From an uncultured Eubacteriales bacterium (GTDB lineage: Bacteria > Bacillota > Clostridia > Christensenellales > Aristaeellaceae), in assembly GCA_902790175.1 (NCBI GenBank), contig CADAQZ010000026.1:1-49931 (forward strand): a stretch of 49,931 nucleotides of DNA. The letters are read 5' to 3'. Under the pieces are notes generated by a model. That model searched no databases. It was not told where the DNA came from and saw only the letters and a list, made by a program, of their open reading frames with translations. The position numbers and the translations under genes are program-made. Shown piece after piece: positions 12,339 through 49,017 of this stretch (its first letter is position 1; each line of letters starts with the position of its first letter).

Positions 12339-12375
12339 TAACTCCTCACTCCTAATTCCTCACTCCTCACTCCTC
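12339..12375 (-). repeat. Heptamer tail at the 3' end of the sensor kinase gene
   Basis: On the minus strand GGAGTGA/GGAATTA units start inside the last codons of the kinase gene and encode its final Glu-Glu and TGA stop. Confidence 0.75.
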
Positions 12376-14082
12376 CTGCGGTATCTCGACAAACACCCTC
12401 GTCCATCCCGGCTCGTCGGTGACGACGCGCAGGCGCGCGCGGTCGCCGTAGATCAGCTTCAGGCGGGTGCAGATGTTCGCCAGGCCCAGGTGGGAGCCGC
12501 CCTGGCTGTCGCCGTTCAGCGCGGCCTCGATGCGGCGGCGATCCTCGGCGGTGGCCATCCGGCCGCTGTTGGCGACCTCCAGGCGCAGCGCGCCGTCCTC
12601 GTGGGCGCAGCGCAGCAGTATCTCCCCGCCGCCCTCGGGCGCGATGCCGTGCTCCACGGCGTTTTCGATCAGCGGCTGCAGCGTCAGCGCGGGCAGCACG
12701 TCCTCCAGTGCCTGCGGCGCGGCGTCGATCCGGCTCTTGAGCCGTTCGCCGAAGCGCAGGCCCACGAAGTAGAAGTAGGCGTTGGCCGTCTCCAGCTCCT
12801 CGCGCAGCGTCAGCGTGCGCCTGTCGCCGCGCGACATCCCCGCGTTGAGCAGCACGCTCAGCGATTCCACCATCGCCGAGATCGACTCAGAGCCCTCGAT
12901 GCGCGCCTGCCAGTTGATCGTCTCCAGCGCGTTGTTGATGAAGTGCGGGTTGATGCGGCTCTGCATGGCCTGGATGCGCGCGTCCCGCAGGGCGATCTCT
13001 TCCTTATAAGTCTTGTCGATCAGCTCGCGCAGCCGCAGGCTCATGTTCGAGAAGGCCTTGCCCAGCGTGCCCAGCTCGTCGTCGCCCTGCATCGGCACGG
13101 TCACGCCCAGCTCCCCGGCCTCGATGCGGTTCGCGGCGTCGGAGAGGATGGCGATGGGCCGCGTGATGCGCCGGTAGACGTACCAGGCGATCACGAGCAG
13201 GATCGGCGCCAGCAGCAGGATCAGCCCGCCCAGCAGCAGCCGGAACGCGTCCAGCTCGCCGTAGAGCCGCGCGCGGCCCAGCAAAAGCCCCGCGCGCAGG
13301 TCGTAGTCGCGGTCCGCGCCCACGCGCATCAGCGCGTACTGCCCTGCCCCGGCGACGGCGATCTCGCCCTCGGGCAGCGCGTCCCACCGCGCGCCCTCCG
13401 GCCCGCCCGCGCCGGTGCCGGTCACGTCGTCCAGCGCCACGTCGTCCAGCGCCACGTCCAGCCGCGCGTCCCAGCTCTTCGCCAGCGCCGCCAGCGGCCC
13501 GATCAGCGCGTCGGTGTCGATGCCCAGCACCAGCATGCCGTAGGGCTTCATGCGCAAATTCATCAGGTTGCGCACCAGGTACACCTCGCCGTCTACGCTC
13601 ACAAAGCGCCCGCGGGTGTCCAGCGCCTCGCCCATGGCCTTCACCTGCTCGTGCGCCTTCGCCTGGTAGGCCGCCGCGGCGTCCGCGCCGCCGCGGTTCA
13701 CCAGCAACAGGTCCGGGTTGTCCAGCGTGAAGCAGGCCGCGAAGGTCAAAAGGGCCTCGCGGCTGTACTTGCGCTCGATGTAGCTGCGGGCGCGGCGCAG
13801 GAACTCGCTGCCCTGGATGGCCCCGGAATCGCGCTGGGCCGCGGCGTCGGTCAGCTCGCCGTCGTAGGTGGCGTCGCGGGAGAGCGTCACCAGCTTCCTG
13901 AGGTTGTCCTCCGCGAGCGTCATGGAGTAGTCCATGCCGGCGAGCAGCGCGGACTCCGTCTTGGCCTGGAAGTCCTTGAACACGGCGCCGCCCATGTACA
14001 GGCCCAGCACCACCGCGGGCAGCAGGTAGCAGATCAGCACGATCGCCGTCAGCTGGACGCGAATCTTCCGAAACACACGCAT
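12367..14082 (-). CDS. Sensor histidine kinase (YesM/LytS-like)
   Basis: Protein of 571 residues from the ATG at 14082, preceded by GGAGG. It has a first membrane helix (about residues 10-33), an extracellular sensing part, a second helix (about 275-300), a HAMP domain, the His-kinase motif MQSRINPHFINNALE with the phosphoacceptor His, and a C-terminal ATPase domain with LTLQPLIENAVEHG and GGSHLGLANIC. This is the YesM class, which pairs with AraC-type response regulators. The extracellular part contains a short duplication, DVALDDVALDDV. The kinase, binding protein and regulator genes follow one another on one strand. Confidence 0.92.
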   Translation of the reverse strand: MRVFRKIRVQLTAIVLICYLLPAVVLGLYMGGAVFKDFQAKTESALLAGMDYSMTLAEDNLRKLVTLSRDATYDGELTDAAAQRDSGAIQGSEFLRRARSYIERKYSREALLTFAACFTLDNPDLLLVNRGGADAAAAYQAKAHEQVKAMGEALDTRGRFVSVDGEVYLVRNLMNLRMKPYGMLVLGIDTDALIGPLAALAKSWDARLDVALDDVALDDVTGTGAGGPEGARWDALPEGEIAVAGAGQYALMRVGADRDYDLRAGLLLGRARLYGELDAFRLLLGGLILLLAPILLVIAWYVYRRITRPIAILSDAANRIEAGELGVTVPMQGDDELGTLGKAFSNMSLRLRELIDKTYKEEIALRDARIQAMQSRINPHFINNALETINWQARIEGSESISAMVESLSVLLNAGMSRGDRRTLTLREELETANAYFYFVGLRFGERLKSRIDAAPQALEDVLPALTLQPLIENAVEHGIAPEGGGEILLRCAHEDGALRLEVANSGRMATAEDRRRIEAALNGDSQGGSHLGLANICTRLKLIYGDRARLRVVTDEPGWTRVFVEIPQEE

Positions 14083-14102
14083 GGCAGACCTCCGATTATT
14101 GG

Positions 14103-14177
14103 ACAACCCCTCCGGCGCTGACGCTTCGCTAGGCCCTGCGGGCTGCGCCACCTCCCCTTACACAGGGGAGGCTTTTG
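14103..14177. repeat. MITE-like palindromic element (partial)
   Basis: Starts ACAACCCCTCCGGCGC and ends with the hairpin CCTCCCCTTACACAGGGGAGG plus CTTTT, which could end plus-strand transcription. Confidence 0.68.
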
Positions 14178-14222
14178 GGCGGGCGCGGGGGCGGACCTTC
14201 CGCCGCAACGCCGCCCCTACGG
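14178..14222. repeat. GC-rich palindromic repeat, CGCCGCCCCTAC type
   Basis: GGGCGGGCGCGGGGGCGGAC, then CTTCCGCCGC and ending CGCCCCTACGG. Nearly identical copies occur at 18534-18576 and, as a longer version, at 27575-27650. Confidence 0.7.
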
Positions 14223-14230
14223 AGAGAACG

Positions 14231-14269
14231 CGCGGCAGCCGCTATTCCTACTCCCTACTCCCTATTCCC
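14231..14269 (-). repeat. Head-plus-tail repeat at the 3' end of the mutase gene
   Basis: Head CGCGGCAGCCGC (14231-14242), then tail units read on the minus strand as GGGAGTAGGGAGTAGG. The first tail unit supplies the natural TAG stop of the mutase at 14269-14271. Confidence 0.72.
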
Positions 14270-15703
14270 TAAAACGGCAAATTCAAATAATCCGCCATCA
14301 TGCCCACCAGCGCGCGGGCGCGCTCCATGGTTTCGGCCTCGGCGAACACGCGCACGCGCGGCTCGGTGCCGGCGCACGCGCGGCTCGGTGCCGGAGAAGC
14401 GCAGTATGATCCACTCGTCCCCGAGGTAGATCTTGCAGCCGTCCTCCCAGCTGACGCGGGTGATCGGCGCGTCGAACGTCGGCAGCTCGCGCCGCTCGAA
14501 CACGCGCGAGGAGATCTCCTGCTTGCGCGCCTCGGTCAGCAGCCAGTCGTACTCCGCCATGTGCAACTCGCCGAACTCGTCGAATATCTCCTGCACCGTC
14601 TGCGAAAGCGGTTTATTCGTCACGGCCAGCATCTCCACCAGCAGCGAGGCGGCGTAGAGGCCGTCCTTGCCGAAGATGTGGCCGCGCACCGTGAGGCCAC
14701 CGGAGCTCTCGCCGCCCAGCAGCGCGTCGTGCTCCTGCATCGCGGCGGAGATGTTCTTGAAGCCCACGGGCACCTCGACGCATTCCTCGCCGAACTTCGC
14801 GGCCACGCGGTCGAGCAGATGCGTGGTGGCGATGTTGCGCACCACGGCTCCCTTCCAGCCCTTGTACCTGAGCAGGTAGTAGTACAGCAGCACGAGGATC
14901 TCGTTGGCGGAGACGTAGCGGCCCTTCTCGTCGATCACGCCCAGGCGGTCGGCGTCGCCGTCGGTGGCGATGCCCAGGTCGGCCTCCTGGTCGATCACCT
15001 GGCGCTGCAGATCCGCCAGCGTGTCCACGGTGGGCGCGGGCAGGCGGCGGCCGAAGAAGGCGTCGTGGGTGTCGTGGATGACGGTCACGTCGCAGCGGCA
15101 GCTGTACAGTATGGTCATCAGGCCCGTGCGGCTGACGCCGTACATCGGGTCCAGCACGATGCGCGGGCGGCGGCGGCGGATGGCCTTCGTATCGATGCGC
15201 TCGAGGATCGAATCGAGGTAGGCGTCGCGGGTGTCCACCAGCGCGATGGCCCCCGACTGCTTGCCCTCCTCGAAGTCGATCGGATGGATGTCCGCGGGGG
15301 TGAGCGCGTTGGCCACGGACTGGATCTCGTCCGTCACCTCCGGCAGCGCGTCGCGCCCGCCGTAGGTGAACAGCTTGATGCCGTTGTACAGCGCCGGGTT
15401 GTGGCTGGCGGTGATGGCCGCGCCGTAGGGCAGCTCCCAGCTCTTGACCGTGAACATGATCTGCGGCGTGGGCGGGGAGATGTTGATGAAGTCCACCTTC
15501 ACGCCCTCCCCCGCGATGGCCTCGGAGAACCATACGGCGGCCTCGCGGCTAAGGAAGCGCCGGTCGTAGCCGATGCAGATCTCCCTGCGGACGCCCTCGC
15601 GGACGATGCGCCGCCCCAGCGCCACCGCGACCTTCTGGATGTTCTCGCGCGTGAACCCGTCGCCGATGACGGCGCGCCACCCGCCGGTACCGAATTGGAT
15701 CAT
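14269..15703 (-). CDS. Phosphoglucomutase/phosphomannomutase, frameshifted near the C-terminus
   Basis: Interconverts hexose 1- and 6-phosphates, here most likely turning glucose 1-phosphate from the neighbouring phosphorylases into glucose 6-phosphate. Alpha-D-phosphohexomutase landmarks are ITASHNP (phosphoserine loop), DGDADRLGV (metal loop), GGESSGG (sugar loop) and RFSGTEP (phosphate loop). After RFSGTEPRV the frame is lost: a 22-bp unit is present twice in tandem at 14350-14393. Removing one copy restores a normal ending (RVFAEAETMERA...) and a stop at 14269. Read literally, the frame runs on to 14255 with an abnormal Arg-rich end. The AGGAGTG ribosome site supports the ATG at 15703. 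All active-site loops come before the lesion. Confidence 0.88.
14350..14393. repeat. 22-bp tandem duplication inside the mutase gene
   Basis: Two perfect copies of the unit at 14350-14371 and 14372-14393, beginning GCGCACGCGCGGCTC. The extra 22 bp shift the reading frame by one base. Confidence 0.95.
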
Positions 15704-15744
15704 AACGGATCACTCCTGTTGATATGTTCTTCCACATTTTGCGT

Positions 15745-15839
15745 ACAGATTCTTCGACTTCATTTCGCCTGCGGCTCCATTTCGCTCAGAATGACAGCGT
15801 TTCGCATCGTTGTCATCCTGAGCGAAGCGAAGGATCTGT
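15745..15839. repeat. Inverted GTCATCCTGAGCG repeat
   Basis: Two facing arms: CAGATTCTTCGACTTC...GCTCAGAATGAC and GTCATCCTGAGCGAAGCG...GGATCTG. It fills most of the 204-base gap between mutase and phosphorylase. Translated, it gives the known spurious CHPERSEG-type peptide. Confidence 0.85.
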
Positions 15840-15907
15840 ACATTGCGCTTTCAAATACCATCTTGCATGGACCAGCAGGGCTTCGCATGCCTGCCAATCG
15901 CCGGCAA

Positions 15908-18310: not shown

Positions 18311-18335
18311 ATCGCCGCCTCCTGCCGTCGGTATC

Positions 18336-18364: not shown

Positions 18365-18424
18365 GGGGCAGAAAAGGAAATGGCTGTGGGTGCGGTTTGT
18401 TGTGCGGGATTGCGGAGTTGGAAA

Positions 18425-18533
18425 AAAGATCCTTCGACTCCGCCGCAATTGCGGCTCCGCTCAGGATGACAGGTATGCGGTTGTCGCATCGTTGTCATCC
18501 TGAGCGGAGCGTCAGCGAAGTCGAAGGATCTTT
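18425..18533. repeat. Inverted GTCATCCTGAGCG repeat
   Basis: Arms AAGATCCTTCGACTCCGCCG and GTCATCCTGAGCGGAGCG...GAAGGATC face each other. It is part of the 394-base gap 18311-18704, which otherwise holds the GH94 promoter and three more repeat types. Confidence 0.85.
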
Positions 18534-18576
18534 GGGCGGGCGCGGGGGCGGACCTTCCGCCGCATCGCCGCCCCTA
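18534..18576. repeat. GC-rich palindromic repeat, CGCCGCCCCTAC type
   Basis: Near-identical to the copy at 14178-14222 and directly joined to the preceding and following repeats. Confidence 0.7.
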
Positions 18577-18629: not shown

Positions 18630-18635
18630 AAAGTG

Positions 18636-18704
18636 CGCGGCAGCCGCCATCAACTCCTAACTCCTCACTCTCCACTCTCCACTCTCCACTCTCCACTCTC
18701 CACT
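18636..18704 (-). repeat. Head-plus-tail repeat at the 3' end of glgP
   Basis: Head CGCGGCAGCCGC (18636-18647), then about seven degenerate heptamers read on the minus strand as GGAGAGT/GGAGTGA. The tail runs straight into the TAG stop of glgP. Confidence 0.78.
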
Positions 18705-20929
18705 CTACTTCCTCAGCCCCCAAATATCCCGGTCATACTCGGCGATGGTGCGGTCGGAGGAGAAGAACCCGGCCATGGCGATGTTCGCGAGGGCCTTGCG
18801 GCTCCAAGCGTTCTCGTCGCCCATGTCGGCAAGGGCCTGCGCCTTGGCACGGCAGTAGTCGGCAAAATCCGGGAAGGTCATGAACCAGTCCTTATTGGCC
18901 AGCTCGTCGTGCAGGCGGGTCAGGCTCTGCGCGTCCCCGGCGGCCAGCATCTCTTCGCCGGTCAAAAAGTCCAGCGCCTCGGCCAGAGCCGCGTCAGCCT
19001 CCAGGTACGCCTTGGGGTCGTAGTCGCCGCGGCGGTAGCGCTCAATCACCTCGTCAGAGGACGCGCCGAACGTGTAGATGTTGTCCGGGCCCACCAGCTC
19101 TGCGATCTCGACGTTCGCGCCGTCCATCGTGCCCAGCGTCACCGCGCCGTTGAGCATGAACTTCATGTTGCCGGTGCCGCTGGCCTCCTTGGAGGCGAGG
19201 GAGATCTGCTCGGACAGGTCGCAGGCCGGGATCAGCTTTTCGGCGGCGGAGACGTTGTAGTTCTCCACCATCACGACCTTCAGCCACTTCGACGCCACGG
19301 GGTCGGCGGCGATCACGTCCGACAGGCAGAGGATCGCGTGGATGATGTCCTTGGCGACGGTGTAGGCCGGGGCGGCCTTCGCGCCGAAGATCGCGGTCAC
19401 GGGGCGCTCGGGCGTCTTCCCGGCGCGGATGTCCAGCAATTCGCGGACGATCCACAGCAGGTTCAGCTGCTGGCGCTTGTACTCGTGCAGGCGCTTGGAC
19501 TGCACGTCGAACACGGATTCCGGATCGATCACCGCGCCCTGGTGCTCCTTCAGCCAGTCGGCAAAGCGCCGCTTGTTCGCGCGCTTCACGCCCGCCAGCC
19601 GCTTCAGGAAGGCCGCGTCGTTTGAAAACGCCTTGAGCTTCTCCAGCTGCGCGGCGTCCGCGCGCCAGCCCATGCCGATCGCGCCGTCGATCAGGTCCGC
19701 GAGGTCGCGGTTGCAGCTCATCAGCCAGCGGCGGAACGTGATGCCGTTGGTCTTGTTGTTGAACTTCTCCGGGTACGCGGCGTAGAACGGCGCGAGCTCG
19801 GCGTTCTTCAGGATCTCGGTGTGCAGCCGCGCCACGCCGTTGACGGAGTGGCTGAAGTGGATGTCGAGGTTGGCCATGTGCACGAAGTCGGCCTCGTCGA
19901 TGATCCACAGGAAGGGGTCGTCAAACTCCGCCTTCACGCGCGCGTCCAGGCGGCGGATGATCGGCATCAGCTGCGGCACGGCGCGCTCCAGGTACGCGAC
20001 GGGCCACTTCTCCAGCGCCTCGGCCAGGATCGTGTGGTTCGTGTAGCCGCAGACGTTCGTCACGATCCCGACGGCCTCGTCCTCGCCGATCCCCCGCTCC
20101 CCGAGCAGCCGGATCAGCTCCGGGATCACCAGCGTCGGGTGCGTGTCGTTGATCTGGATGGCGGCGTAGTCGGCCAGGTCGTGCAGGTCGCTGCCGCGGG
20201 CGACGCACTCGTCCAGGATCAGCCGCGCGGCGTTGGCCACCATGAAGTACTCCTGGTACACGCGCAGCAGGCGGCCCGCGTCGGTGCTGTCGTCGGGATA
20301 GAGGAACAGCGTCAGGTTCTTCGCCAGGTCGGCCTGGTCGAACGCGATGCCGGATTTGATCAGCCGCTCGTCGGCTGTGTCCACGTCGAACAGGCGCAGC
20401 CTTCCGCACTGGCCGTGGTAGCCGGTCACGGTGATCTCATACATCGTGGAGCGCAGCGTCGCCCCGCCAAAGGGGATGTCGTAGTGGGTGGCGGTGCGGT
20501 GCATCCAGCTCTCGGTGCCCCAGCGCAGCCACGTGTCCGGCGTCTCGGCCTGGCGATTGTCCACGAAGTTCTGCTTGAACAGGCCGCAGTGGTAGGCCAG
20601 GCCCACGCCGTCGGCGGGCAGGCCCAGCGTCGCCAGGCTGTCCAGGAAGCACGCGGCCAGTCGGCCCAGCCCGCCGTTGCCCAGCGAAGGCTCCAGCTCG
20701 AACTCCTCCAGGTCGGAAAGCGCCACGCCCGCGGCGGCCAGCTCGGCCTTCACCTCGTCGTAGAGGCCCAGGTTGATCAGGTTGTTGCTCAGCAGCTTGC
20801 CGATCAAAAACTCCGCCGAGATGTAGTACAGCTTCTTCTTGCCCTCGTTGAAGCCCGGGCGTTGAACAGCTCCAGCTTCGTGCACTCGTTCAGGGGCTTT
20901 TTGGCGTAATCTTTCAGGGTGCGGCTCAT
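18705..20929 (-). pseudogene. glgP: Glycogen/maltodextrin phosphorylase, frame broken near the N-terminus
   Basis: PLP enzyme (GT35) that releases glucose 1-phosphate from alpha-1,4-glucans. Most of the protein is intact, including KKLYYISAEFLIGKLLSNN, the PLP-lysine motif GTGNMKF and a normal end. The natural start is the ATG at 20929 after AGGAGG, giving MSRTLKDYAKKPLNECTKLE. At about 20853-20863 that frame is lost and the rest lies in another frame. Relatives have roughly 12-20 more residues at this point, so a short deletion of 3n+1 bases is likely. As written the full enzyme cannot be made unless translation re-starts. An AraC regulator gene is divergent from it. Confidence 0.85.
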
Positions 20930-27443: not shown

Positions 27444-27544
27444 AAAGATCCTTGACGCTGCGCTAGACCTGCGGCAGCACTTCGTTCAGGATGACAAGTC
27501 GGCGAAAACCGCGTCGTTGTCATCCTGAGCGCACCGAAGGATCT
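27444..27544. repeat. Inverted GTCATCCTGAGCG repeat (degenerate)
   Basis: Arms AAGATCCTTGACGCTGCG...TTCAGGATGAC and GTCATCCTGAGCGCACCGAAGG. It is part of the 383-base gap 27420-27802, which holds only repeats. Confidence 0.8.
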
Positions 27545-27574
27545 GTACGTTCCGTTTCCAATCGGCAAACAAAA

Positions 27575-27658: not shown

Positions 27659-27711
27659 CGCGGCAGCCGCTATCAACTCCTCACTCCTCACTCCTAACTC
27701 CTCACTCATCA
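27659..27711. repeat. Head-plus-tail repeat
   Basis: Head CGCGGCAGCCGC (27659-27670), then TATCAACTCCTCACTCC and further heptamers. Here a palindromic element separates it from the 3' end of the next gene. Confidence 0.78.
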
Positions 27712-32351: not shown

Positions 32352-32393
32352 TGTATTGCGGCATCATCAACATGTGGCAACGGACCGCAGCCG

Positions 32394-32532
32394 ACAGATT
32401 CTTCGACTTCATTCCGCCTGCGGCTCCATTCCGCTCAGAATGACATCGTTGCGCGTCGATCGTCATCCTGAGCGGAGCCTTGCGCACGGCAAGGCGCAGT
32501 CGTGCCGTAGGCCTGCGAAGCAAAGGATCTGT
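32394..32532. repeat. Inverted GTCATCCTGAGCG repeat (long form)
   Basis: Arms CAGATTCTTCGACTTCATTC and GTCATCCTGAGCGGAGCC...AAAGGATCTG, with an inserted TTGCGCACGGCAAGGCG hairpin. It is part of the 406-base gap 32352-32757, which also holds a terminator but no gene that I can see. Confidence 0.85.
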
Positions 32533-34031: not shown

Positions 34032-34042
34032 GAATAATGCGA

Positions 34043-34142
34043 AAAGATCCTTCGCTTCGCTCAGGATGACAACGCTGCGGTTTCCGCGAGCCTGTCATCC
34101 TGAGCGGAGCCTTGCATCAGCAAGGCGCAGTCGAAGGATCTT
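34043..34142. repeat. Inverted GTCATCCTGAGCG repeat
   Basis: Arms AAGATCCTTCGCTTCGCTC and GTCATCCTGAGCGGAGCC...TCGAAGGATCTT, between the BMP terminator and the 3' end of the GGDEF-EAL gene. Confidence 0.85.
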
Positions 34143-38495: not shown

Positions 38496-38581
38496 CGCGG
38501 CAGCCGCCATCAACTCCTCACTCCTCACTCCTCACTCCTAACTCCTCACTCTCCACTCTCCACTCTTCACTCTCAACTCTC
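38496..38581 (-). repeat. Head-plus-tail repeat at the 3' end of the flavoprotein gene
   Basis: Head CGCGGCAGCCGC (38496-38507), then about nine heptamers (minus strand GGAGTGA, GGAGTTA, GGAGAGT). The tail reaches into the gene and encodes its last residues (Arg-Glu-Ser) and TGA stop. Confidence 0.8.
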
Positions 38582-39958
38582 CCTAATCCCCGCGATCTCC
38601 CGCGCCACGTACACCCCGCTGGCGGAGGCGTGGCTCAAGGAGTGCGTGACGCCGGAGCCGTCGCCGATGACGTAGAGGCCCTTGTGGCAGGTCTCCAGGT
38701 GGCGGTCGAGCTCCACTTCCATGTTGTAGAACTTCACCTCCACGCCGTAGAGGAGCGTGTCGTCGTTGGCGGTGCCGGGGGCGATCTTGTCCAGCGCGTA
38801 GATCATCTCGATGATGCCGTCGAGGATGCGCTTGGGCAGCACGAGGCTCAGATCGCCCGGCGTGGCCGCCAGCGTAGGCTTCACGGTGCCCTCGTCGATG
38901 CGCTTGGGCGTGCTGCGGCGACCGCGCTCGAGATCCCCGAAGCGCTGTACGATGGCCCCGCCGCCCAGCATGTTGGACAGCCGCACGATGCTCTCGCCGT
39001 AGCCGTTCGAGTCGTGGAAGGGCTCGGAGAAGTGCTTGGACACCAACAGCGCGAAGTTCGTGTTCTCGGTCTTGCGGCCCTCGTCCTCGAAGCTGTGGCC
39101 GTTCACGGTCACGATGCCGTTCGTGTTCTCGTTGACCACGATGCCGCGCGGGTTCATGCAGAACGTGCGCACCTGGTCCTCGTACTTCTCGGTGCGGTAG
39201 AGGATCTTGCTCTCGTACAGCTCGTCGGTGATGTGGGCGAAGATCACGGCGGGCAGCTCCACGCGCACGCCCAGGTCCACGCGGTTGGACTTCGTGGCGA
39301 TGCCCAGCGCGCCGCAGACGTGCTCCATCCACTTGCTGCCGCTGCGGCCCACGGACACCACGCACCGGCGGCACTCGTAGGCGTCGTCGCCGCAGCGCAC
39401 GCGGTAGCCCTCGTCCAGGCCGATCACCTCGATGGCGTCCACCATCGTGTTGAAGTAAAAGTCCACCTTATCGCGCAGCTTTTCATACAGATTGCCCAGC
39501 ACCACGTAGTTGATGTCGGTGCCCAGGTGGCGCACCGAGGCCTCCAGCAGCGTGAGCCTATTCTGCATGCACAGCTTCTTGAAGCGCGTGCCGGCGGTGG
39601 AGTACAGCGCGGTGCCCTGGCCGCCGTTTTCCACGTTGATGCGGTCCACGTAGCGCATCAGGTCCATGGCCTCGTCGCGCCCGATGTACTCGTACAGCGT
39701 GCCGCCGAAGTCGTTGGTGATGTTGTACTTGCCGTCGGAGAAGGCCCCCGCGCCGCCAAATCCGTTCATGATCGCGCAGGTGGGGCACTTCACGCAGCTC
39801 TTGATCTTTTTGCCGTCGATCGGGCACTTGCGCTTGTCCAGCGGGTTGCCGGCCTCGAACACGGCCACCTTCAGATCCGGGCGCCTCTGGGTCAGCTCCC
39901 AGGCGGTGAAGATGCCGCCGGGGCCCGCGCCGATGATGATCACGTCGTAGTTGTTCAT
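38573..39958 (-). CDS. FAD-dependent oxidoreductase (BaiN/HI0933-like or COG2509 type)
   Basis: Protein of 461 residues with an N-terminal FAD-binding motif (VIIIGAGPGGIFTAW) and a C-terminal FAD motif (GLYVIGDGSGVTHSL). A cysteine-rich patch (CPIDGKKIKSCVKCPTCAIM) follows the first motif, as in COG2509 dehydrogenases. The exact reaction is unknown. GGAGG precedes the ATG. It starts 20 bases after the second aldo/keto reductase on the same strand, so the two probably form a redox pair. The last three residues come from a heptamer repeat. Confidence 0.85.
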   Translation of the reverse strand: MNNYDVIIIGAGPGGIFTAWELTQRRPDLKVAVFEAGNPLDKRKCPIDGKKIKSCVKCPTCAIMNGFGGAGAFSDGKYNITNDFGGTLYEYIGRDEAMDLMRYVDRINVENGGQGTALYSTAGTRFKKLCMQNRLTLLEASVRHLGTDINYVVLGNLYEKLRDKVDFYFNTMVDAIEVIGLDEGYRVRCGDDAYECRRCVVSVGRSGSKWMEHVCGALGIATKSNRVDLGVRVELPAVIFAHITDELYESKILYRTEKYEDQVRTFCMNPRGIVVNENTNGIVTVNGHSFEDEGRKTENTNFALLVSKHFSEPFHDSNGYGESIVRLSNMLGGGAIVQRFGDLERGRRSTPKRIDEGTVKPTLAATPGDLSLVLPKRILDGIIEMIYALDKIAPGTANDDTLLYGVEVKFYNMEVELDRHLETCHKGLYVIGDGSGVTHSLSHASASGVYVAREIAGIRES

Positions 39959-41121: not shown

Positions 41122-41185
41122 GGGAATGCTCCTTTCGCTCGTATATGTTTTCTTCTTAATTACAGTGTCCTTCGCTTCGCAACGG

Positions 41186-41270
41186 ACAGATCCTTCGCTT
41201 CGCTCAGGATGACAGGCGATCCGTTATACTGTCATTCTGAGCGAAGGCGCAGCCGAAGTCGAAGAATCTG
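41186..41270. repeat. Inverted GTCATTCTGAGCG repeat
   Basis: Arms CAGATCCTTCGCTTCGCTC and GTCATTCTGAGCGAAGGC...CGAAGAATCTG, in the gap between the cobalamin operon end and the aldo/keto reductase gene. Confidence 0.85.
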
Positions 41271-42259: not shown

Positions 42260-42263
42260 AACC

Positions 42264-43772
42264 TCATTCCTCATTCCTCAAAATCCGATAAACCTTCTCC
42301 ATATCCAGGCTCGCGCGCACGACATCGGCGAGCTTGTCGAACTGCGCCTCGCGGTAGGCGGCGAAGTCGGGGGCGGGGGCCGCGCCGTCCTCCGGCAGGC
42401 CCTTGATCGCCCGCGCGCGCCGGATGAGCGCGTCGGACAGCCGCCCATCATCGAATAGCCCGTGCAGATAGGTGCCCAGCACGTTGCCCGCGGTGTTGCA
42501 GGCTCCGAGGGGCCTCCCCGCGCCGTCCGCGAGCCAGACGCGCGCGCCCGGCCCGTAGGCGTTTTCGCCGTTGTGGATCTCGTAGCCCGCGATGCCCGCG
42601 CCGCGCAGCCCCGCCAGCCAGTCCGGCCCGCCGCAGACCGCGCCCGTCGCCTGGGCGGTGCGCTTTTCGGCATGGAAGGAGACCTCTATGTCGATCAGGC
42701 CCAGACCCGCGGCCTCGGGCGCGTCCGATTCCACGCCCTCGGGGTCGCGCAGCGCGTTCCCCAGCATCTGGAAGCCCCCGCACACGCCCGCCAGCAGCCC
42801 GCCCGCGCGGGCGTGGCGCACGATAGGCGCGAGCATGCCGCGCCGCTTCAGGTCGTTCAGGTCCCCGATGGTGTTCTTCGTGCCGGGCAGGATGATCACG
42901 TCCGCGCCCGCCAGGTCCTCCGGCGCGAGCGCGTACTTCAGCGTCACGCCGGGGTGCAGCGACAGCGCCTGGAAGTCCGTAAAGTTTGAGATGTGCTTGA
43001 GCCGCACCACCGCCACGGTGATCTCCCCCGCGCCGGTCTGCGCCGTCAGCCGCCGGGACACGCTGTCCTCGTCCTCGATGTCCGCGTCCGTCCACGGCAC
43101 CACGCCCAGCACCGGGATGCCCAGCCTGTCCTCGATCATCCGCAGCCCCGGCTCCAGGATCGCCAGATCCCCGCGGAACTTGTTGATGATCAGGCCCTTG
43201 ACCCGCGCGCGCTCGTTCGGCTCCAACAGCATCACGGTGCCGTAAAGCGCCGCGAACACGCCGCCGCAGTCGATGTCGCCCACGAGCACGACCGGCGCGT
43301 CGGCGGCTTCGGCCATCCACATGTTCACCAGGTCGCCCTCGCGCAAATTGATCTCCGCAGGGCTGCCCGCGCCTTCGATCACCACGGCGTCGTATTGCGC
43401 CTCCAGCACGTCGTAGGTCTGTTTCACCAACGTCCGCAGTCTGGGCTTGTACAGGTGGTACTCCATCGCCGTCATGCTGCCGATGGGCCTGCCCATGCAG
43501 ATCACCTGGCTATGTCTGTCGCCGGTGGGCTTCAACAGGATCGGGTTCATCGCCGCGACGGGCTCCAGGCCCGCGGCCTGCGCCTGCACGGCCTGGGCGC
43601 GGCCGATCTCCAGGCCCTCGCGCGTGGCAAAGCTGTTCAGCGCCATGTTCTGGCTCTTGAACGGCGCGACGCGCAGGCCGTCCTGCCGAAACACGCGGCA
43701 CAGCCCCGCGCACAGCATGGACTTCCCCACCGACGAGCCGGTGCCCTGGAGCATGATACACTTCCCGCGCAT
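42264..43772 (-). CDS. cbiP: Cobyric acid synthase CbiP/CobQ
   Basis: Protein of 502 residues that amidates four side chains of adenosyl-cobyrinic acid diamide using glutamine and ATP. The N-terminal part has the P-loop (LQGTGSSVGKS) and KSQNMALNS; the C-terminal amidotransferase part has the nucleophile Cys in GVCGGFQMLG and the His in GTYLHGLFDD. AGGAGG precedes the ATG at 43772. It follows the acetyltransferase by 9 bases. The last residues (Arg-Asn-Glu-Glu) come from GAGGAATGAGG, resembling the heptamer tail seen elsewhere. Confidence 0.95.
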   Translation of the reverse strand: MRGKCIMLQGTGSSVGKSMLCAGLCRVFRQDGLRVAPFKSQNMALNSFATREGLEIGRAQAVQAQAAGLEPVAAMNPILLKPTGDRHSQVICMGRPIGSMTAMEYHLYKPRLRTLVKQTYDVLEAQYDAVVIEGAGSPAEINLREGDLVNMWMAEAADAPVVLVGDIDCGGVFAALYGTVMLLEPNERARVKGLIINKFRGDLAILEPGLRMIEDRLGIPVLGVVPWTDADIEDEDSVSRRLTAQTGAGEITVAVVRLKHISNFTDFQALSLHPGVTLKYALAPEDLAGADVIILPGTKNTIGDLNDLKRRGMLAPIVRHARAGGLLAGVCGGFQMLGNALRDPEGVESDAPEAAGLGLIDIEVSFHAEKRTAQATGAVCGGPDWLAGLRGAGIAGYEIHNGENAYGPGARVWLADGAGRPLGACNTAGNVLGTYLHGLFDDGRLSDALIRRARAIKGLPEDGAAPAPDFAAYREAQFDKLADVVRASLDMEKVYRILRNEE

Positions 43773-43781
43773 AGGCGCCTC

Positions 43782-44231: not shown

Positions 44232-44264
44232 GGTGGGCCTCCTTGTGATGTGATTGCATGGCTG

Positions 44265-44435
44265 CCAAAAGGCTTCCCCTCTGGGGAAGCTGTCAGCATC
44301 CTTGGATGCTGACTGAAGAGGTCGACGTGGTACAGTGAAATGGCAGTCCATTAATCGACCTCTTCCGACCTCGCTGCGCTCGGTCACCTGACGCTGACAC
44401 TAGGCCTGTGGCCCCCAAAGGGGAAGGCTTTGGGG
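44265..44435. repeat. Long palindromic MITE-like element
   Basis: A 171-bp unit with outer hairpins CCAAAAGGCTTCCCCTCTGG and CCCCCAAAGGGGAAGGCTTT, and an inner inverted pair GAGGTCGAC / TCGACCTC. It separates cobD from the acetyltransferase inside the cobalamin gene row. Confidence 0.78.
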
Positions 44436-44437
44436 AT

Positions 44438-44480
44438 CGCGGCAGCCGCTAACTCCAACTCCTCACTCCTAACTCCCTTA
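44438..44480 (-). repeat. Head-plus-tail repeat at the 3' end of cobD
   Basis: Head CGCGGCAGCCGC (44438-44449), then tail units read as GGAGTTAGGAGTGAGGAGTT. The tail encodes the last nine residues of CobD (RELGVRSWS), and the TAG stop lies at the head-tail junction. Confidence 0.82.
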
Positions 44481-45459
44481 GCGCCCGCACCAGCCGCGCA
44501 TTCTCCGCCTCCGTTCGCACGGCGAGGCGGACGTGGCCGTCGGTGAGGCCGGGAAACGCGCCGCAGGGGCGCACGAGGATGCGATTTTCACGCAGGGCCT
44601 CGACGGCGGGACGCATGTCCCTCCCGAAATCGCAGAGCAGGAAGTTGGCCTCCGAGGGCTGCACCTTCGCGCCGAGATCCTCCAGCGCGACGGCGAACGC
44701 CGCGCGACGGTGGGCATTTCTCTCGCGAATCACCTCAAAATCCCCCTCGCGTCCCGGCAGCGCCGCCGCCACGGCCTCGGCCGCGCAGTTCAGCCGCCAT
44801 GGGGGCAAGCTTTCCTCCAGCGCCGCGATCACCGACGAGTGCGCCGCGACGTAGCCCAGCCGCGCGCCCGGGATCGCCAGCGCCTTGGTCAGCGACCCCA
44901 GCACGATCAGCGCCGGATGCGCCGCCACTTCCCGCGCCACGCCGTGCCCGGGGCAGTAGTCGATGAACGCCTCGTCCACGACCAGCCGCCCGCCCTCGGC
45001 CTCGACGCGCGCCAGCAGCGCCAGCACGTCCTCCCGCGAGAGCGCCGCGCCGGTGGGGTTGTTCGGGTTGCACAGCCACACGCACTCGCCGGGCTCCGGG
45101 GCAAAATCCCGCCAGTTTTCCCAATCGACATTCCTGTGCGCGCCGCACAGGCGTGCGTACTCCTGAAACGTCGGCTGGAGGATCGCGTGGCGGTTCAACA
45201 GCCGGGCCACCGCCGCCGCCGCCTCGACGCCGCCGCTCATGGGCAAAATACACTCCGGCGACACGCCCGCGTGCGCCGCCAGCCCCGCGCGCGCCGATTC
45301 GGAGCGCGGGTCGGGATAGTAGCCCGCGTTTTCGAGCCCCGCCGCCAGCGCCGCGCGCACCCAGTCGGGCGGGCCGTCGGGGTTCAGGCTCGCGGAGAAG
45401 TCCAGCCAGTCCCCGGGGCGGCTGCCGCGCCAGACGTCCCCGCCGTGAACGACGCTCAT
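44449..45459 (-). CDS. cobD: Threonine-phosphate decarboxylase-like PLP enzyme CobD
   Basis: PLP-dependent enzyme of 336 residues, related to histidinol-phosphate aminotransferase, that makes aminopropanol phosphate for the cobalamin arm. Family signs are DFSASLNPDGPPDWV, CNPNNPTG, VVDEAFIDY, the PLP lysine in GSLTKALAIPG and the Arg in ARLGY. The start overlaps the cbiA stop by four bases (ATGA). The extreme C-terminus is made of repeat-derived codons. The location in the cobalamin operon favours CobD over histidine synthesis. Confidence 0.9.
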   Translation of the reverse strand: MSVVHGGDVWRGSRPGDWLDFSASLNPDGPPDWVRAALAAGLENAGYYPDPRSESARAGLAAHAGVSPECILPMSGGVEAAAAVARLLNRHAILQPTFQEYARLCGAHRNVDWENWRDFAPEPGECVWLCNPNNPTGAALSREDVLALLARVEAEGGRLVVDEAFIDYCPGHGVAREVAAHPALIVLGSLTKALAIPGARLGYVAAHSSVIAALEESLPPWRLNCAAEAVAAALPGREGDFEVIRERNAHRRAAFAVALEDLGAKVQPSEANFLLCDFGRDMRPAVEALRENRILVRPCGAFPGLTDGHVRLAVRTEAENARLVRALRELGVRSWS

Positions 45460-46718
45460 CGCAGTATCCTCTCTATCAGCGCCGGGCGGTCGAACCAGTG
45501 CAGGTGCGGGTAGCCCGCCAGCGCATTCATGTATACATACCCCTCACGCCACGTCGCCGCGCCCTTGCGCACCTCGAAGCGCGTCTCAAGCGGCGCAGTC
45601 GGCTCCACGGCGGAGTGGTGGAATTCGTGGGCCGGGAACGAGAGGTCGCCGTCCGACACGGTGACGTAGCCGAAGCGCCGCAGCCCGCCGGTCATTTTCC
45701 AGCGCATCGGCAGCGCGCCGATCATCGCCAGGTACAGCATGCCGCCGCACTCCGCGTACACCCGCAGCCCGCCCTCGATCGCGCCGCGCACCGAGGCCGC
45801 CATGGCCGCGTTGCCGGTCAATTCGGCCTCGAACGCCTCGGGAAAGCCGCCGGGCAGGATCAGCGCGTCGAGGCTTTCCGGCAGCGCGGCGTCAGCAAGC
45901 GGCGAGAACTCGACGACCTCCGCGCCCATGTCCGAAAGCGCCCACAGGTTCGGCTCGTAGATGAAGGAAAAGGCGGCGTCCCGGGCGACGCCCACGCGCA
46001 TACCGGCGAGGGTCCGGGGGTATTCAAACGCCGGGACCTCGACGGCCTGCGCCGCGCGGGCGACGCGCATCAGCCCCTCCGCGTCCAGCCGCAGCAGCCC
46101 CGCCGCGCGCTCGATCTGCGCCGCCGCCTGCGGGCGCTCCTGCGCGGGCACGAGCCCCAGGTGCCGCTCGGGCATGGCGAGCCCCGCGTCCTTTGGAAGC
46201 CACCCCAGGCAGGGAAGGCTGATCTTCTCCAGCGCCGCGCGCACCAGCTCGTAGTGGCGCTCGCCGGAGGCCCGGTTTACCAGCGCCGCGACGATCGTGT
46301 GATCCGGGCGATACTTCAAAAATCCCAGCGCCGAGGCCGCGCAGCTGGCCGCGCCGCCGGATGCGTCCAGCGCCAGCACGACCGGCGTGCCGGTGTGCTT
46401 CGCCAGCGCGTAGGCGCTGCAGGCGTCGCCGCCGTCCAGCCCGTCGTAAAAGCCCATGGCCCCCTCGATCACGGCGATATCCGCCCCCGAAGCGCCGCGC
46501 GCGAGGATGCGCCGCACGCTGCCCGGCGCACAGAGCCACTCGTCCAGGTTGTGCGAGACGCGCCCGCAGGCGAGGCGGTGGAAACCGGGGTCGATGTAGT
46601 CCGGTCCGGCCTTGAACGGCGCGACCGACAGGCCCCGCGCGCGCAGCGCCGCCATCAGCGCCAGCGACAGCGTGGTCTTGCCGCAGCCGCTGCCGGTGCC
46701 CGCCAGCATGATCCGCAT
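45456..46718 (-). CDS. cbiA: Cobyrinate a,c-diamide synthase CbiA
   Basis: Protein of 420 residues that amidates the a and c side chains of cobyrinate. It has a P-loop near the N-terminus (AGTGSGCGKTTLS), FKAGPDYIDPGFH, and the amidotransferase part with LPGGFPE and the Cys in YAECGGMLYL. It is the first gene of the operon; a second ATG three codons in is also possible because the ribosome site (GGGGCGG) is weak. The leader is about 35 nt and holds no cobalamin riboswitch that I can see. Confidence 0.94.
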   Translation of the reverse strand: MRIMLAGTGSGCGKTTLSLALMAALRARGLSVAPFKAGPDYIDPGFHRLACGRVSHNLDEWLCAPGSVRRILARGASGADIAVIEGAMGFYDGLDGGDACSAYALAKHTGTPVVLALDASGGAASCAASALGFLKYRPDHTIVAALVNRASGERHYELVRAALEKISLPCLGWLPKDAGLAMPERHLGLVPAQERPQAAAQIERAAGLLRLDAEGLMRVARAAQAVEVPAFEYPRTLAGMRVGVARDAAFSFIYEPNLWALSDMGAEVVEFSPLADAALPESLDALILPGGFPEAFEAELTGNAAMAASVRGAIEGGLRVYAECGGMLYLAMIGALPMRWKMTGGLRRFGYVTVSDGDLSFPAHEFHHSAVEPTAPLETRFEVRKGAATWREGYVYMNALAGYPHLHWFDRPALIERILR

Positions 46719-46756
46719 CCGCCCCGCCCCCCGTGTGCCGATTTATCTTCAATATA

Positions 46757-46786
46757 AGTATAGCACATTCCGCGAATCGGTGACAA
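46757..46786 (-). promoter_or_regulatory. Promoter of the cobalamin operon
   Basis: Minus-strand -35 TTGTCA (46781-46786) and -10 TATACT (46757-46762) with an 18-bp spacer. Confidence 0.75.
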
Positions 46787-46813
46787 GGGGCGGCGCGCCT
46801 CATTGTCATACAC

Positions 46814-46842
46814 TTGCAAAACTAATGCAATACTTCTATGAA
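46814..46842 (+). promoter_or_regulatory. Possible promoter of the PQQ-propeller gene
   Basis: TTGCAA (46814-46819) and TATGAA (46837-46842) with a 17-bp spacer; the leader would be about 70 nt. Confidence 0.42.
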
Positions 46843-46920
46843 CATCCCGCCACACATCCGATGTAAAATGAAATTTGGTGGAAATATGACTTTATTTTGA
46901 TAACAGGATGACAAACGGCC

Positions 46921-48825
46921 ATGAGAGACAACCACGCCGCCGCGCGGCGAACGGCGAGGCGGCCGGGCACGACCCGCGCCCGCGCCGTGCAGCGCCGCAG
47001 GCAGCGGCTGAAAAACATCATAATCGCCTCGACATGCCTGCTGATCGTGCTGGGCTGCGGCGCGTTCTGGGCGCTCTCCGCCCTGACGCCAAAACCCGCG
47101 CGCATCGCGCCGCAGGTGCAGGTCGCGGCCCCGGCAATGGACGCGCGCCTGATGGGTGAAAACGCGCCGAAGCTGGCGGTACCCGAGCCGGAGCGCACGC
47201 CGCTTCCGACCCGCGCGCCCACCGAGGCCCCGACCCCAGAGCCGGAGCCTACGCCCGAGCCCACCACCACGCTGGAGCCGGTCCCCGAGGCCGTGGCCAA
47301 GCGCGGCGACAATCTGGACGCCGCGGTGTATCGCCAGGCGGCGGTCGCCGCCGTGGAATACGCCGATCCCGGCGCGAACCAGCTGGTGTCCAAGACCGAG
47401 GTGTTCGCCGAGGACGCCGCGCCCCTCGCCGCAGAGAGCGAGATCCACATGGGCGCGTCCGCCGAATACGCCGCCATCGAGGGCGTGACCACCTTCCGCG
47501 GCACCAACTACCGCGACGGCGGGGCCTACGGCGAGATCCCCGAAAACCCCCGGGCGCTGTTCGTGGCCTGGCAGAAGCGCATCGGCAGCCTGGACAACTG
47601 GACCGGCGTGGGCTGGACGGGCCAGGCCAGCGTGGTGCGCTGGCCGGCGGACCTGCGCGCGCAGATGAACATCAACCGCGCCAAGAAGAACAAGAATGGC
47701 CTGACGGAGGTGCTCTACGCCACGCTGGACGGCCACATCTACTTCCTCGACCTGGAGGACGGCCAGGAGACCCGCGGCGCGATCAACATCGGCGCGCCCA
47801 TCAAGGGCAGCCTGACGGTGGACCCGCGCGGCGTGCCGCTGTTGTACTGCGGGCAGGGCATCTACGAGTTTGAAAACGGCAAGCGCGTGCAGTGCGGCAC
47901 CCGCATCTGGAGCCTCATCGACCAGCAGCAGCTCTACTTCCTCAACGGCAGCGATTCCAAGGCCCACCGCCACTGGTTCGCCTTCGACTGCTCGCCGCTG
48001 GTGGACGGCGCGACCGACACGATGATCACCGCCGGGGAGAACGGCGTGCTCTACAAGGTGAAGCTGAACACGCGGCAGGCCGCGGATCAGGTGTCTGTGG
48101 ACCCGACCGTCACCCGCTACACCTACAAGCAGAAGGTCGATGGCAAGCTGGGCACGGAGAACTCCGTGGCCGTGTACAACAGCTACGCTTACTTCGCCAA
48201 CAACACCGGCATCATCCAGTGCGTGGACCTGAACGCCATGGAGCTCATCTGGAGCTACGCCGACGGCGACGACACCGACGCCAGCCTGGTGATCGAGCCG
48301 GAGGCGGACGGGCAGGTGGCGCTCTACGCCGTGAACGAGGTGGACAAGCGCGGCAGCCGCGGCGCGAGCCAGATGATCAAGCTGAACGCGCTGACCGGCG
48401 AGGTGCTCTGGAGCGTGGACTCCGACCCCATCTACCAGAACGACGAGAACGGCGGCGGCGGCTTCGCCACCCCGGCGGTGGGCAAGGGCAGCCTTTCCGA
48501 TCTCGTGTACTTCCACATCTGCCGCACCGAGCACACCCACGGCATGCTCTACGCGCTGGACAAGCGCACGGGCGAGACCGTCTGGGCCCGGAGCCTGGAG
48601 CGCTACGGCTGGTCGTCGCCCACGTGCCTGTACGCGCCCTCCGGCAAGGGCTACGTGCTGGTGGGCTCCAGCGACGGCACGCTGCGGCTGCTGGACGGCC
48701 TGACCGGCGAGGACGTCGCCAGCGTCCAGCTGAACGGCAACATCGAGGGCACCCCCGCCGTGTTCGACGACATGATCGTCGTCGGCACCCGCGGCAGCGT
48801 GATCTATGGGATCAAGATTGTGTGA
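46921..48825 (+). CDS. Membrane-anchored PQQ-like beta-propeller protein
   Basis: Protein of 634 residues. A basic cytoplasmic start is followed by one membrane helix (about residues 32-52) and a Pro/Thr/Glu-rich linker (about 80-120, PTEAPTPEPEPTPEPT). The rest is an extracellular beta-propeller with repeating blades such as LYATLDGHIYFLDLEDG, GMLYALDKRTGETVW and VGSSDGTLRLLDGLTG. These are PQQ-type repeats (BamB fold) but lack signs of an enzyme site, so a scaffold or binding role is likely. The ribosome site is weak. It is divergent from the cobalamin operon, and there is no clear functional link. Confidence 0.85.
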   Translation: MRDNHAAARRTARRPGTTRARAVQRRRQRLKNIIIASTCLLIVLGCGAFWALSALTPKPARIAPQVQVAAPAMDARLMGENAPKLAVPEPERTPLPTRAPTEAPTPEPEPTPEPTTTLEPVPEAVAKRGDNLDAAVYRQAAVAAVEYADPGANQLVSKTEVFAEDAAPLAAESEIHMGASAEYAAIEGVTTFRGTNYRDGGAYGEIPENPRALFVAWQKRIGSLDNWTGVGWTGQASVVRWPADLRAQMNINRAKKNKNGLTEVLYATLDGHIYFLDLEDGQETRGAINIGAPIKGSLTVDPRGVPLLYCGQGIYEFENGKRVQCGTRIWSLIDQQQLYFLNGSDSKAHRHWFAFDCSPLVDGATDTMITAGENGVLYKVKLNTRQAADQVSVDPTVTRYTYKQKVDGKLGTENSVAVYNSYAYFANNTGIIQCVDLNAMELIWSYADGDDTDASLVIEPEADGQVALYAVNEVDKRGSRGASQMIKLNALTGEVLWSVDSDPIYQNDENGGGGFATPAVGKGSLSDLVYFHICRTEHTHGMLYALDKRTGETVWARSLERYGWSSPTCLYAPSGKGYVLVGSSDGTLRLLDGLTGEDVASVQLNGNIEGTPAVFDDMIVVGTRGSVIYGIKIV

Positions 48826-48829
48826 TAGG

Positions 48830-48969
48830 AAAAAAGCCTTCCCCTTTGGGGAAGGTGGCAGCCCGTAGGGCTGACGAATGAGGTCGCACAGCGTTCATAC
48901 GCACCGTTGTACCATGTCGACCTCATCCGGCGCTGACGCGCCACCTTCCCCAGAGGGGAAGGCTTTTTT
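48830..48969. repeat. 140-bp inverted-repeat element acting as bidirectional terminator
   Basis: Ends AAAAAAGCCTTCCCC and GGGGAAGGCTTTTTT are exact inverted copies. Next inwards are the GGCAGCCCGTAGGGCTG and GGCGCTGACGCGCC hairpins, then the pair AATGAGGTCG / CGACCTCAT. It starts a few bases after the PQQ-gene stop, between two convergent genes. Confidence 0.82.
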
Positions 48970-48979
48970 GTTCTGCCGC

Positions 48980-49017
48980 TTCACTCTCCACTCTCCACTC
49001 TTCACTCTCCACTCTCC
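48980..49017 (-). repeat. Heptamer tail at the 3' end of the thioesterase gene
   Basis: Minus-strand GGAGAGT/GAAGAGT units begin inside the gene, encode its last residues (Glu-Ser-Gly-Glu) and the TGA stop, then continue. No 12-bp head follows here. Confidence 0.75.

What the first reader, a model, noticed from the sequence alone, without database searches (positions are those of the whole stretch)
12339..49017. Head-plus-heptamer-tail repeat that forms the 3' ends of genes
A 12-bp head, CGCGGCAGCCGC, occurs exactly at 14231, 18636, 27659, 38496 and 44438, with a variant at 12225. Each is followed by a variable run of GGAGTGA-like heptamers. In at least five genes (sensor kinase, flavoprotein, cobD, thioesterase, and cbiP in a mini form) the tail lies inside the reading frame and supplies the last 2-9 residues and the stop codon. 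In glgP and the mutase it starts at the stop. In sense direction the tail is a row of Shine-Dalgarno-like GGAG motifs. It could be a mobile or retro-type unit that targets gene ends, or a ribosome recycling or re-initiation device. Heptamer arrays recall cyanobacterial STRRs, but the fixed head and the position at stop codons look distinct.
Basis: partly seen in the sequence, partly recalled or inferred. Interest (0 to 1): 0.78.

Follow-up and report, generated by a model that had tools for sequence, protein, structure and literature searches.

The report
Intergenic seven-base tandem repeat arrays
Arrays of seven-base repeats sit in the gaps between genes of this bacterium and press up against gene ends, so they often include the stop signal; this is a new example of a repeat type already described in other bacteria, and the link to stop signals looks passive rather than aimed.

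Summary
Seven genes in the window end at or in a heptamer array with the purine strand in sense. In 917 kb of the genome, period-7 runs number 66 in noncoding DNA and 0 deep in genes, against 0-1 noncoding runs for periods 4, 5, 8, 10, 11 and 13. Of 76 arrays, 37 have the purine-strand edge within -30..+10 of a stop (simulated mean 9.2, maximum 19); none has the C-rich strand in sense there.

The head is not fixed (18 of 76 arrays by a crude motif sort). Between same-direction genes, 27 arrays sit at the upstream gene's 3' end and 23 at the downstream gene's 5' side. Sister species show array-free sites, or other heptamers inside the same gene borders.

Best reading: STRR-like heptamer arrays, partly arms of intergenic inverted-repeat modules, which expand locally and end at functional borders. 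Nearly the same geometry is published for Xanthomonas and Nostoc heptamers (PMC4692102), and it recurs for GGAGT[GT]A in loci titled from many phyla. Function and the cause of period seven remain unshown.

The parts
5038..5066 (+). heptamer array, unit AGAGTGG, about 41 bp upstream of the start of the alpha-L-fucosidase gene (C-rich strand in sense)
   Evidence: Pfam
8486..8517 (+). heptamer array, unit AATGAGG, in a divergent gap
12188..12219 (+). heptamer array, unit GAGTGAG, about 22 bp upstream of the solute-binding-protein gene 10974-12170; left arm of an inverted pair with 12341-12375
   Evidence: Pfam
12225..12236 (-). head variant with one mismatch
12341..12375 (-). heptamer array at the 3' end of the sensor kinase gene 12367-14151; holds its last 2 codons and stop
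   Evidence: Pfam
14231..14242 (+). head CGCGGCAGCCGC
14247..14271 (-). heptamer array, unit TAGGGAG, at the 3' end of the mutase gene 14255-15703, which appears frameshifted against orthologues
18636..18647 (+). head CGCGGCAGCCGC
18652..18706 (-). heptamer array, units AGAGTGG and GGAGTTA, beginning in the stop codon of glgP
27659..27670 (+). head CGCGGCAGCCGC, not at a gene end
27676..27711 (-). heptamer array, unit AGGAGTG, 168 bp from the nearest gene end on that side
38496..38507 (+). head CGCGGCAGCCGC
38513..38581 (-). heptamer array at the 3' end of the FAD-dependent protein gene 38573-39958; sister G162 has a different unit and core in the same gap
42262..42280 (-). short heptamer array, unit AATGAGG, at the 3' end of cbiP 42264-43772
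44438..44449 (+). head CGCGGCAGCCGC
44449..44476 (-). irregular heptamer array at the 3' end of the cobD-like gene 44449-45459; found by TRF, below the threshold of the 76-array set
48982..49017 (-). heptamer array, unit AGAGTGG, at the 3' end of the acyl-ACP thioesterase gene (stop at 49002)

Best explanation
These are intergenic heptanucleotide tandem arrays of the STRR-like kind, mostly one T plus six purines per unit. A part of them are the arms of intergenic inverted-repeat modules: purine heptamers, a short core, then the complementary heptamers. The head is one of several core elements. Shown: the arrays in the sample are outside genes or at gene edges, the period is seven, the purine strand mostly reads from the nearer gene into the gap, paired arms share units more than shuffled pairs, and units and cores change between close species inside the same gene borders. 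Inferred: arrays grow and turn over by local seven-base duplication (slippage or hairpin-mediated template switching) and by replacement of whole modules, and they spread over neutral DNA until a functional border stops them: the stop codon on a 3' side, the ribosome-binding or leader region on a 5' side. The link to stop codons is then passive: seven is not a multiple of three and T-purine-purine is often a stop, so an array that touches a gene end can supply the stop and a few residues. No cellular function is shown, and why the period is seven is not explained.
For: Period seven alone is enriched in noncoding DNA. 0 of 76 arrays deep in a called gene. Purine edge within -30..+10 of a stop in 37 of 76 (simulated mean 9.2, maximum 19), C-rich strand in sense there 0; inward reading 65 of 76 (mean 37.8, maximum 56); successive arrays in a gap face each other in 19 of 20; identical arm units 9 of 19 (shuffled mean 2.4, maximum 7). 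Same-direction gaps: 27 on the 3' side, 23 on the 5' side; on 5' sides the nearest array edge of the inward kind is 15 bp from the called start. Unit and core turnover between G000 and G162 and between G146 and G108. 10 of 75 orthologous 3' ends have a purine-sense array near the stop, 0 a pyrimidine-sense one. Same geometry in other phyla: 33 of 51 within -22..+10 of a stop.
Against: Most arrays stand alone: an inverted match of at most 3 mismatches on the inner side in 32 of 75, with a composition control at 21 of 75, so the two-armed module covers only part of them. L292 against L293 looks like a true insertion with a duplicated palindrome. In other phyla 7 of 48 arrays on a 5' side lie within 10 bp of the called start, which a ribosome-binding border would not allow, though starts were called mechanically. 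The seven-base duplication itself was not observed, only inferred from species differences.
Confidence: 0.6

Rival explanations
1. Arrays are kept for a function: a DNA or RNA hairpin between arms, transcription termination through the C-rich strand, or stabilisation of mRNA ends.
For: The same orientation rule in this genome and in loci titled from many phyla; divergent gaps are poor in arrays (0.25 per kb against 0.83 tandem and 0.9 convergent); arm units agree.
Against: 3'-side and 5'-side arrays show opposite strands to the transcript, so a strand-specific RNA role cannot serve both. Only 10 of 75 orthologous 3' ends have an array near the stop. Most arrays have no clear partner arm.
Confidence: 0.2
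2. A mobile or retro-type unit with head and tail that targets gene ends or stop codons.
For: Arrays begin at the stop to within a few bases in many genes (20 of 76 within -5..+5); different modules at the same place in sister species; L292 against L293 looks like an insertion; heads are mostly next to arrays (20 of 26).
Against: As many arrays on 5' sides as on 3' sides in same-direction gaps; inner neighbours differ between arrays; 22 RAYT-type genes without arrays nearby. No general search for another mobiliser was made.
Confidence: 0.1
3. Products of RAYT/REP-type (Y1 transposase) activity.
For: By my count from the tables, 12 of 17 family genomes with a long-frame (245 aa or more) Y1 gene are array-positive, against 17 of the other 133; Fisher value about 1e-6 (computed).
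Against: That test ignores kinship within genera. None of 22 RAYT-type genes has a heptamer run within 260 bp; many carry other inverted repeats of the GGGGACGGTTC type. Array-rich genomes G044 and G118 are not among the 56 with a Y1 match.
Confidence: 0.04
4. Assembly artefact of a metagenome-like draft.
For: The genome is a 72-contig draft of 87.8% completeness and repeats can be misassembled.
Against: Arrays at the same gene ends in other genomes, and the same geometry in records of named isolates.
Confidence: 0.02

Closest known systems
G-rich heptamer repeats GGGAATC of Xanthomonas and GGGGA(C/T)T of Nostoc (Rehm et al. 2015, PMC4692102; abstract and sections 3, 10, 11, 13, 14, 16 read)
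   Same: Period seven, mostly intergenic, within 50 bp of the stop on the coding strand including overlap with the stop, or within 50 bp upstream of a start on the non-coding strand; few between divergent genes; in the xanthomonads 70 and 75 inverted pairs; extensive length variation between close species.
   Different: Other units (19 of 76 arrays here have a GGG run by the unit list, so most do not fit a three-tetrad G-quadruplex); other host group; here sister species change unit and core, whereas in Xanthomonas 83% of repeats were found in the same context; in Nostoc inverted pairs were few.
Cyanobacterial STRR heptanucleotides (name and original description recalled; seen here only as citing lines in PMC4692102 and as search listings)
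   Same: Dispersed intergenic heptanucleotide tandem arrays; the GGAGT[GT]A unit itself occurs in Nostoc, Calothrix and other cyanobacterial records.
   Different: Host group and unit mix; partner palindromes.
TAACTGA heptamer repeats of Beggiatoaceae, cyanobacteria and Bacteroidetes (MacGregor 2015, PMC4679880; abstract and section 10 read)
   Same: Heptamer arrays between genes, patchy distribution over phyla, indels in 7-nt steps between strains.
   Different: One fixed unit, and in the Beggiatoa genome mostly just upstream of start codons.
Foldback transposons with tandem-repeat inverted ends (recalled, no call)
   Same: Inverted ends built of short tandem repeats.
   Different: No transposase, no constant core and no general target duplication seen here.

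Membership tests
Intergenic heptanucleotide tandem arrays (STRR-like) | tandem units of seven bases, several copies | tested here: met
   66 noncoding period-7 runs, other non-triplet periods 0-1 apart from the harmonic 14
Intergenic heptanucleotide tandem arrays (STRR-like) | dispersed over the genome and outside genes | tested here: met
   76 arrays on 8 sampled contigs, 0 deep in called genes
Intergenic heptanucleotide tandem arrays (STRR-like) | found in cyanobacteria in the original sense of STRR (recalled) | tested here: inconclusive
G4-forming heptamer repeats (Rehm et al. 2015) | three or more consecutive G per unit | tested here: not met
   19 of 76 array units hold GGG, 57 do not (unit list)
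G4-forming heptamer repeats (Rehm et al. [quoted passage not shown]
G4-forming heptamer repeats (Rehm et al. 2015) | G-quadruplex formation in vitro | not testable with these tools
   no biophysics here
MITE or other mobile element | constant unit with defined ends at many sites | tested here: not met
   inner neighbours differ between arrays; crude motif sort
MITE or other mobile element | target duplication at filled sites | tested here: inconclusive
   duplicated palindrome in L292 against L293; not seen in the other filled/empty gaps read by eye
RAYT/REP system | cognate repeats flanking the RAYT gene | tested here: not met
   0 of 22 RAYT-type genes have a heptamer run within 260 bp
Foldback transposon | inverted ends made of tandem repeats | tested here: met
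   19 inward pairs of 20 successive arrays, but most arrays lack a clear partner
Foldback transposon | transposition | not testable with these tools
   only presence and absence between species were seen

The most novel reading that the evidence does not exclude
Bacteria of many phyla share one unrecognised process that builds seven-base repeats at intergenic palindromes: it extends both arms of a hairpin with the same unit, purine strand inward, exchanges units between close species, and stops exactly at functional gene borders. The arrays would then be a natural map of where neutral DNA ends.
Probability: 0.2. Interest if true: 0.75.

Novelty: new member of a known kind. Interest (0 to 1): 0.45.

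Why it matters
Heptamer arrays have been noted in several bacteria, but the papers seen here leave their origin and role open (PMC4692102, PMC4679880). This genus offers close species pairs in which gain, loss, unit change and replacement can be read gap by gap, and the orientation rule repeats in loci titled from many phyla. That makes the origin of the period seven and of the fixed orientation testable. It also warns annotators that the last residues and the stop of such genes may come from a repeat.

Tried and rejected
RAYT/Y1 transposases as mobiliser: raw association, but no array beside 22 RAYT-type genes; rejected as direct cause. Fixed head: rejected. Special position at stop codons: rejected on class counts, although flush contact with stops is real. 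Ribosome re-initiation: set aside because 5'-side arrays are C-rich in the sense RNA; no ribosome data. Rfam: 0 matches in the window at gathering scores. Stop-codon usage: TAA 1 of 20 where an array begins at the stop and 1 of 17 where the stop is inside it, against 212 of 720 elsewhere; TAG 7 of 20 and 5 of 17 against 129 of 720; this fits stops supplied by the units but the numbers are small. Intrastrand triplex motifs (PMC4666352): abstract and outline seen, not followed. Literature searches listed nothing closer than PMC4692102 and PMC4679880.

Superseded steps: my first gene caller settled on the wrong strand and was replaced; (41 arrays of one unit pattern, 5 contigs) was replaced (any unit, 8 contigs); the head count 16 of 26 looked at one side only and (20 of 26) replaces it.

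Limits: the gene caller is home-made, and starts are less sure than stops. The sort is crude: by eye one of the 18 'head' rows is not the head and several of the 39 'other' rows carry degenerate heads. The set of 76 misses weaker arrays, such as cobD's and 12188-12219. The pattern covers one unit family, so negative genomes may carry other units; its reversed-pattern control is as high as or higher than the pattern in G086, G108 and G146, probably because it matches GGAATGA-type arrays (inference). The reading of titles as phyla is my own knowledge. Only Y1-type genes were tested as possible mobilisers.
Full report
What is there. The window is contig C26 of an unnamed 2.43-Mb, 72-contig genome. 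The head CGCGGCAGCCGC is exact at the five places named, and also at 48349 (+) and 45418 (-) inside called genes. Heptamer runs stand behind the five heads; others without the exact head occur at 5038, 8486, 12188, 12341, 42262 and 48982. Seven genes in the window end at or in an array with the purine strand in sense. The 27659 unit lies 168 bp from the nearest gene end on that side. Two arrays in the window lie upstream of gene starts.

Is it chance? I took 917 kb of the genome (window included) as stretches and called 762 genes with a simple self-trained caller. Runs of period seven number 66 in noncoding DNA and edges and none deep in genes; noncoding runs of periods 4, 5, 8, 10, 11 and 13 number 0 or 1, period 14 (39) is the harmonic, and periods 6, 9, 12 and 15 occur mainly in coding DNA. 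A slightly looser cut gave 76 merged arrays. Units are mostly one T (52 of 76) and six purines (51 of 76).

Where do they sit? Reading along the purine strand, the gene before the array shows its 3' end in 45 of 76 cases and its 5' end in 31. By class: same-direction gaps hold 27 arrays on the upstream gene's 3' side and 23 on the downstream gene's 5' side, convergent gaps 18, divergent gaps 8. Per kb of gap this is 0.83, 0.9 and 0.25 for tandem, convergent and divergent. So arrays are not special to gene 3' ends. But at 3' ends they are flush: 37 of 76 have the purine edge within -30..+10 of a stop (simulated mean 9.2, maximum 19 in 2000 placements), 20 within -5..+5 (mean 2.6, maximum 8), and none has the C-rich strand in sense within -30..+10. 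On 5' sides with the purine strand leading away from the gene, the nearest edge is 15 bp from the called start. In 65 of 76 the purine strand reads from the nearer gene into the gap (mean 37.8, maximum 56).

Pairs and heads. With a more sensitive cut, successive arrays in one gap face each other in 19 of 20 cases, and the two arms have the identical unit in 9 of 19 (shuffled mean 2.4, maximum 7). Yet most arrays stand alone: 32 of 75 have an inverted match of at most three mismatches on the inner side, against 21 of 75 for a complement control, 6 for direct and 4 for mirror words. The inner neighbour varies: head-like in 18, a GGGGCGGC palindrome in 13, an AAATCC hairpin in 6, other sequence in 39, by a crude motif sort that by eye misses some degenerate heads. 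The head is thus one of several partners, though 20 of 26 exact heads in the genome have a period-7 run within 80 bp, against 40 of 2000 random sites.

Sister species. In a draw of 150 family genomes, 29 carry the triple pattern, among them all 7 of the same genus, own included; the reversed-pattern control is as high or higher in three of those (G086, G108, G146), probably through GGAATGA arrays. In a phylum draw 7 of 398, own included, carry GGAGT[GT]A x2.7. For four window genes I compared 75 orthologous 3' ends: 10 have a purine-sense array within -30..+20 of the stop, 0 a pyrimidine-sense one; three of the 10 are the window's own, the window's cobD array and two glgP ends with visible GGAATGA units (G108, G146) fell below the threshold. 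The glgP end shows the range: GAGTGGA units in the window species, GACTGAA in G162 with a near-identical head, GGAATGA/GGAATTA in G086, none in others.

Gap by gap, the window genome and the held part of G162 (150 reciprocal best pairs, mean identity 94.7%) share 95 gaps: 77 without arrays, 10 with arrays in both, 4 and 4 called in one only; by eye two of those eight carry a weak array in both. Of the 10, eight differ in main unit by my reading. At C14:45442 and C26:38433 unit and core differ within the same borders. At C1:44910 neighbouring blocks are amplified differently (GGAATTC against GGGAACA). At C26:20885 G162 has a module where the window species has none. The held parts of G146 and G108 (114 pairs, 96.3% identity) share 76 gaps: 65 without, 6 both, 5 one only. 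One G146 module stands in place of some 20-25 bp, from the last codons of one gene to just before the next ribosome-binding site; another gap holds two unrelated modules (my reading). In L292 against L293 an array-core-array unit lies between two copies of a palindrome that the relative has once; this one looks like an insertion.

Why the tail is in the reading frame. The heptamer shifts frame with each copy and T-purine-purine is often a stop: 41 of 76 arrays have stops in all three frames of the purine strand, 7 in none. An array that touches a gene end can therefore capture the frame. TAA is rare at array stops, 2 of 37 against 212 of 720 at other genes. The mutase is the clearest case: in G169 the gene ends CCG TTT TAG and the array begins at that TAG; the window gene reaches the matching DNA in another frame and stops a few codons later in the array. 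Second-frame matches to its last residues in G162, G169, G108, G146, G086 and G153 agree with a frameshift in the window copy, real or an assembly error.

Beyond this genus. In these loci 106 arrays had genes on both sides: 7 deep in genes; 33 on the tandem 3' side, 39 on the tandem 5' side, 18 convergent, 9 divergent. With a gene 3' end behind them, 33 of 51 lie within -22..+10 of the stop; with the C-rich strand in sense, 1 of 57 lies within -30..+10. On 5' sides 7 of 48 lie within 10 bp of the called start, closer than in the window genome. With the seed arrays and 300 bp on each side removed, the loci still hold 84 period-7 runs, against 7 for period 8, 12 for period 9 and 0 for 4, 5, 10 and 11. 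The loci were chosen for having arrays, so this says how arrays sit, not how common they are.

Compared with print. Rehm et al. (PMC4692102; abstract and sections 3, 10, 11, 13, 14, 16 read) describe GGGAATC in Xanthomonas and GGGGA(C/T)T in Nostoc: mostly intergenic; most within 50 bp of the stop on the coding strand, overlaps with the stop included, or within 50 bp upstream of a start on the non-coding strand; in the xanthomonads 30-35% in each same-direction class, 16% convergent, 7-8% divergent, and 70 and 75 inverted pairs; in Nostoc 18%, 34%, 11% and 9%, with few pairs. The present shares are 36%, 30%, 24% and 11%. MacGregor (PMC4679880; abstract and section 10 read) describes TAACTGA arrays with mostly 7-nt indels between two strains. 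The position at stop codons is therefore not new. What I did not find in print is this host group and unit mix, the agreement of arm units, and the exchange of units and cores within fixed borders between close species.

How it most likely works. Shown: location, orientation, period, turnover between species. Inferred: local seven-base duplication, partly as arms of a hairpin, limited by coding and ribosome-binding sequence. Not shown: why seven, which enzyme, whether any function is selected. A strand-specific RNA role does not fit, since 3'-side and 5'-side arrays show opposite strands to the transcript; a strand-symmetric hairpin role remains possible. The Y1/RAYT idea had a raw association (12 of 17 against 17 of 133, counted by me; Fisher value) that ignores kinship, and none of 22 RAYT-type genes has an array nearby.

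Verdict. Real and striking within the genome, already known in kind, and not aimed at stop codons.

Noticed in passing
L358 (G000:C44:1-6000) and the other loci: RAYT-type Y1 transposase genes with inverted repeats of the GGGGACGGTTC type close to many of them.
   Followed up: partly
L292, L337, L295: Some array modules in other species are bounded by a further palindrome of the CTGATTTGTCG type outside the heptamer arms, present twice in L292 and once in L293.
   Followed up: partly
window 14255-15703 (-): The mutase gene appears frameshifted near its 3' end relative to orthologues in the genus; real or an assembly error cannot be told.
   Followed up: partly
window 15745-15854, 18453-18536, 27479-27561, 32393-32502, 34040-34120, 41178-41253: Other dispersed palindromes (TCATCCTGAGCG... 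type, CCTTCCCC hairpins, GGGGCGGCGATGCGCCGCC type with a leading GTAG) stack with the arrays in the gaps.
   Followed up: no
G162 gap orthologous to G000:C3:60765: Where the window species has a heptamer module, G162 has a longer stretch whose sequence looks like a Y1-type transposase gene (not searched) between GTAGGGACGCCATAATTGGCGTCC palindromes.
   Followed up: no
G000:C5, gap after 108617: A short frame GTGAATCGCAGCGCGTACAGCTATTACTACTTTTACTTTATCGGCACTTGCGGATAG, rich in Tyr and Phe codons and conserved in G162, followed by an inverted repeat, looks like a leader peptide of an attenuator (my reading).
   Followed up: no
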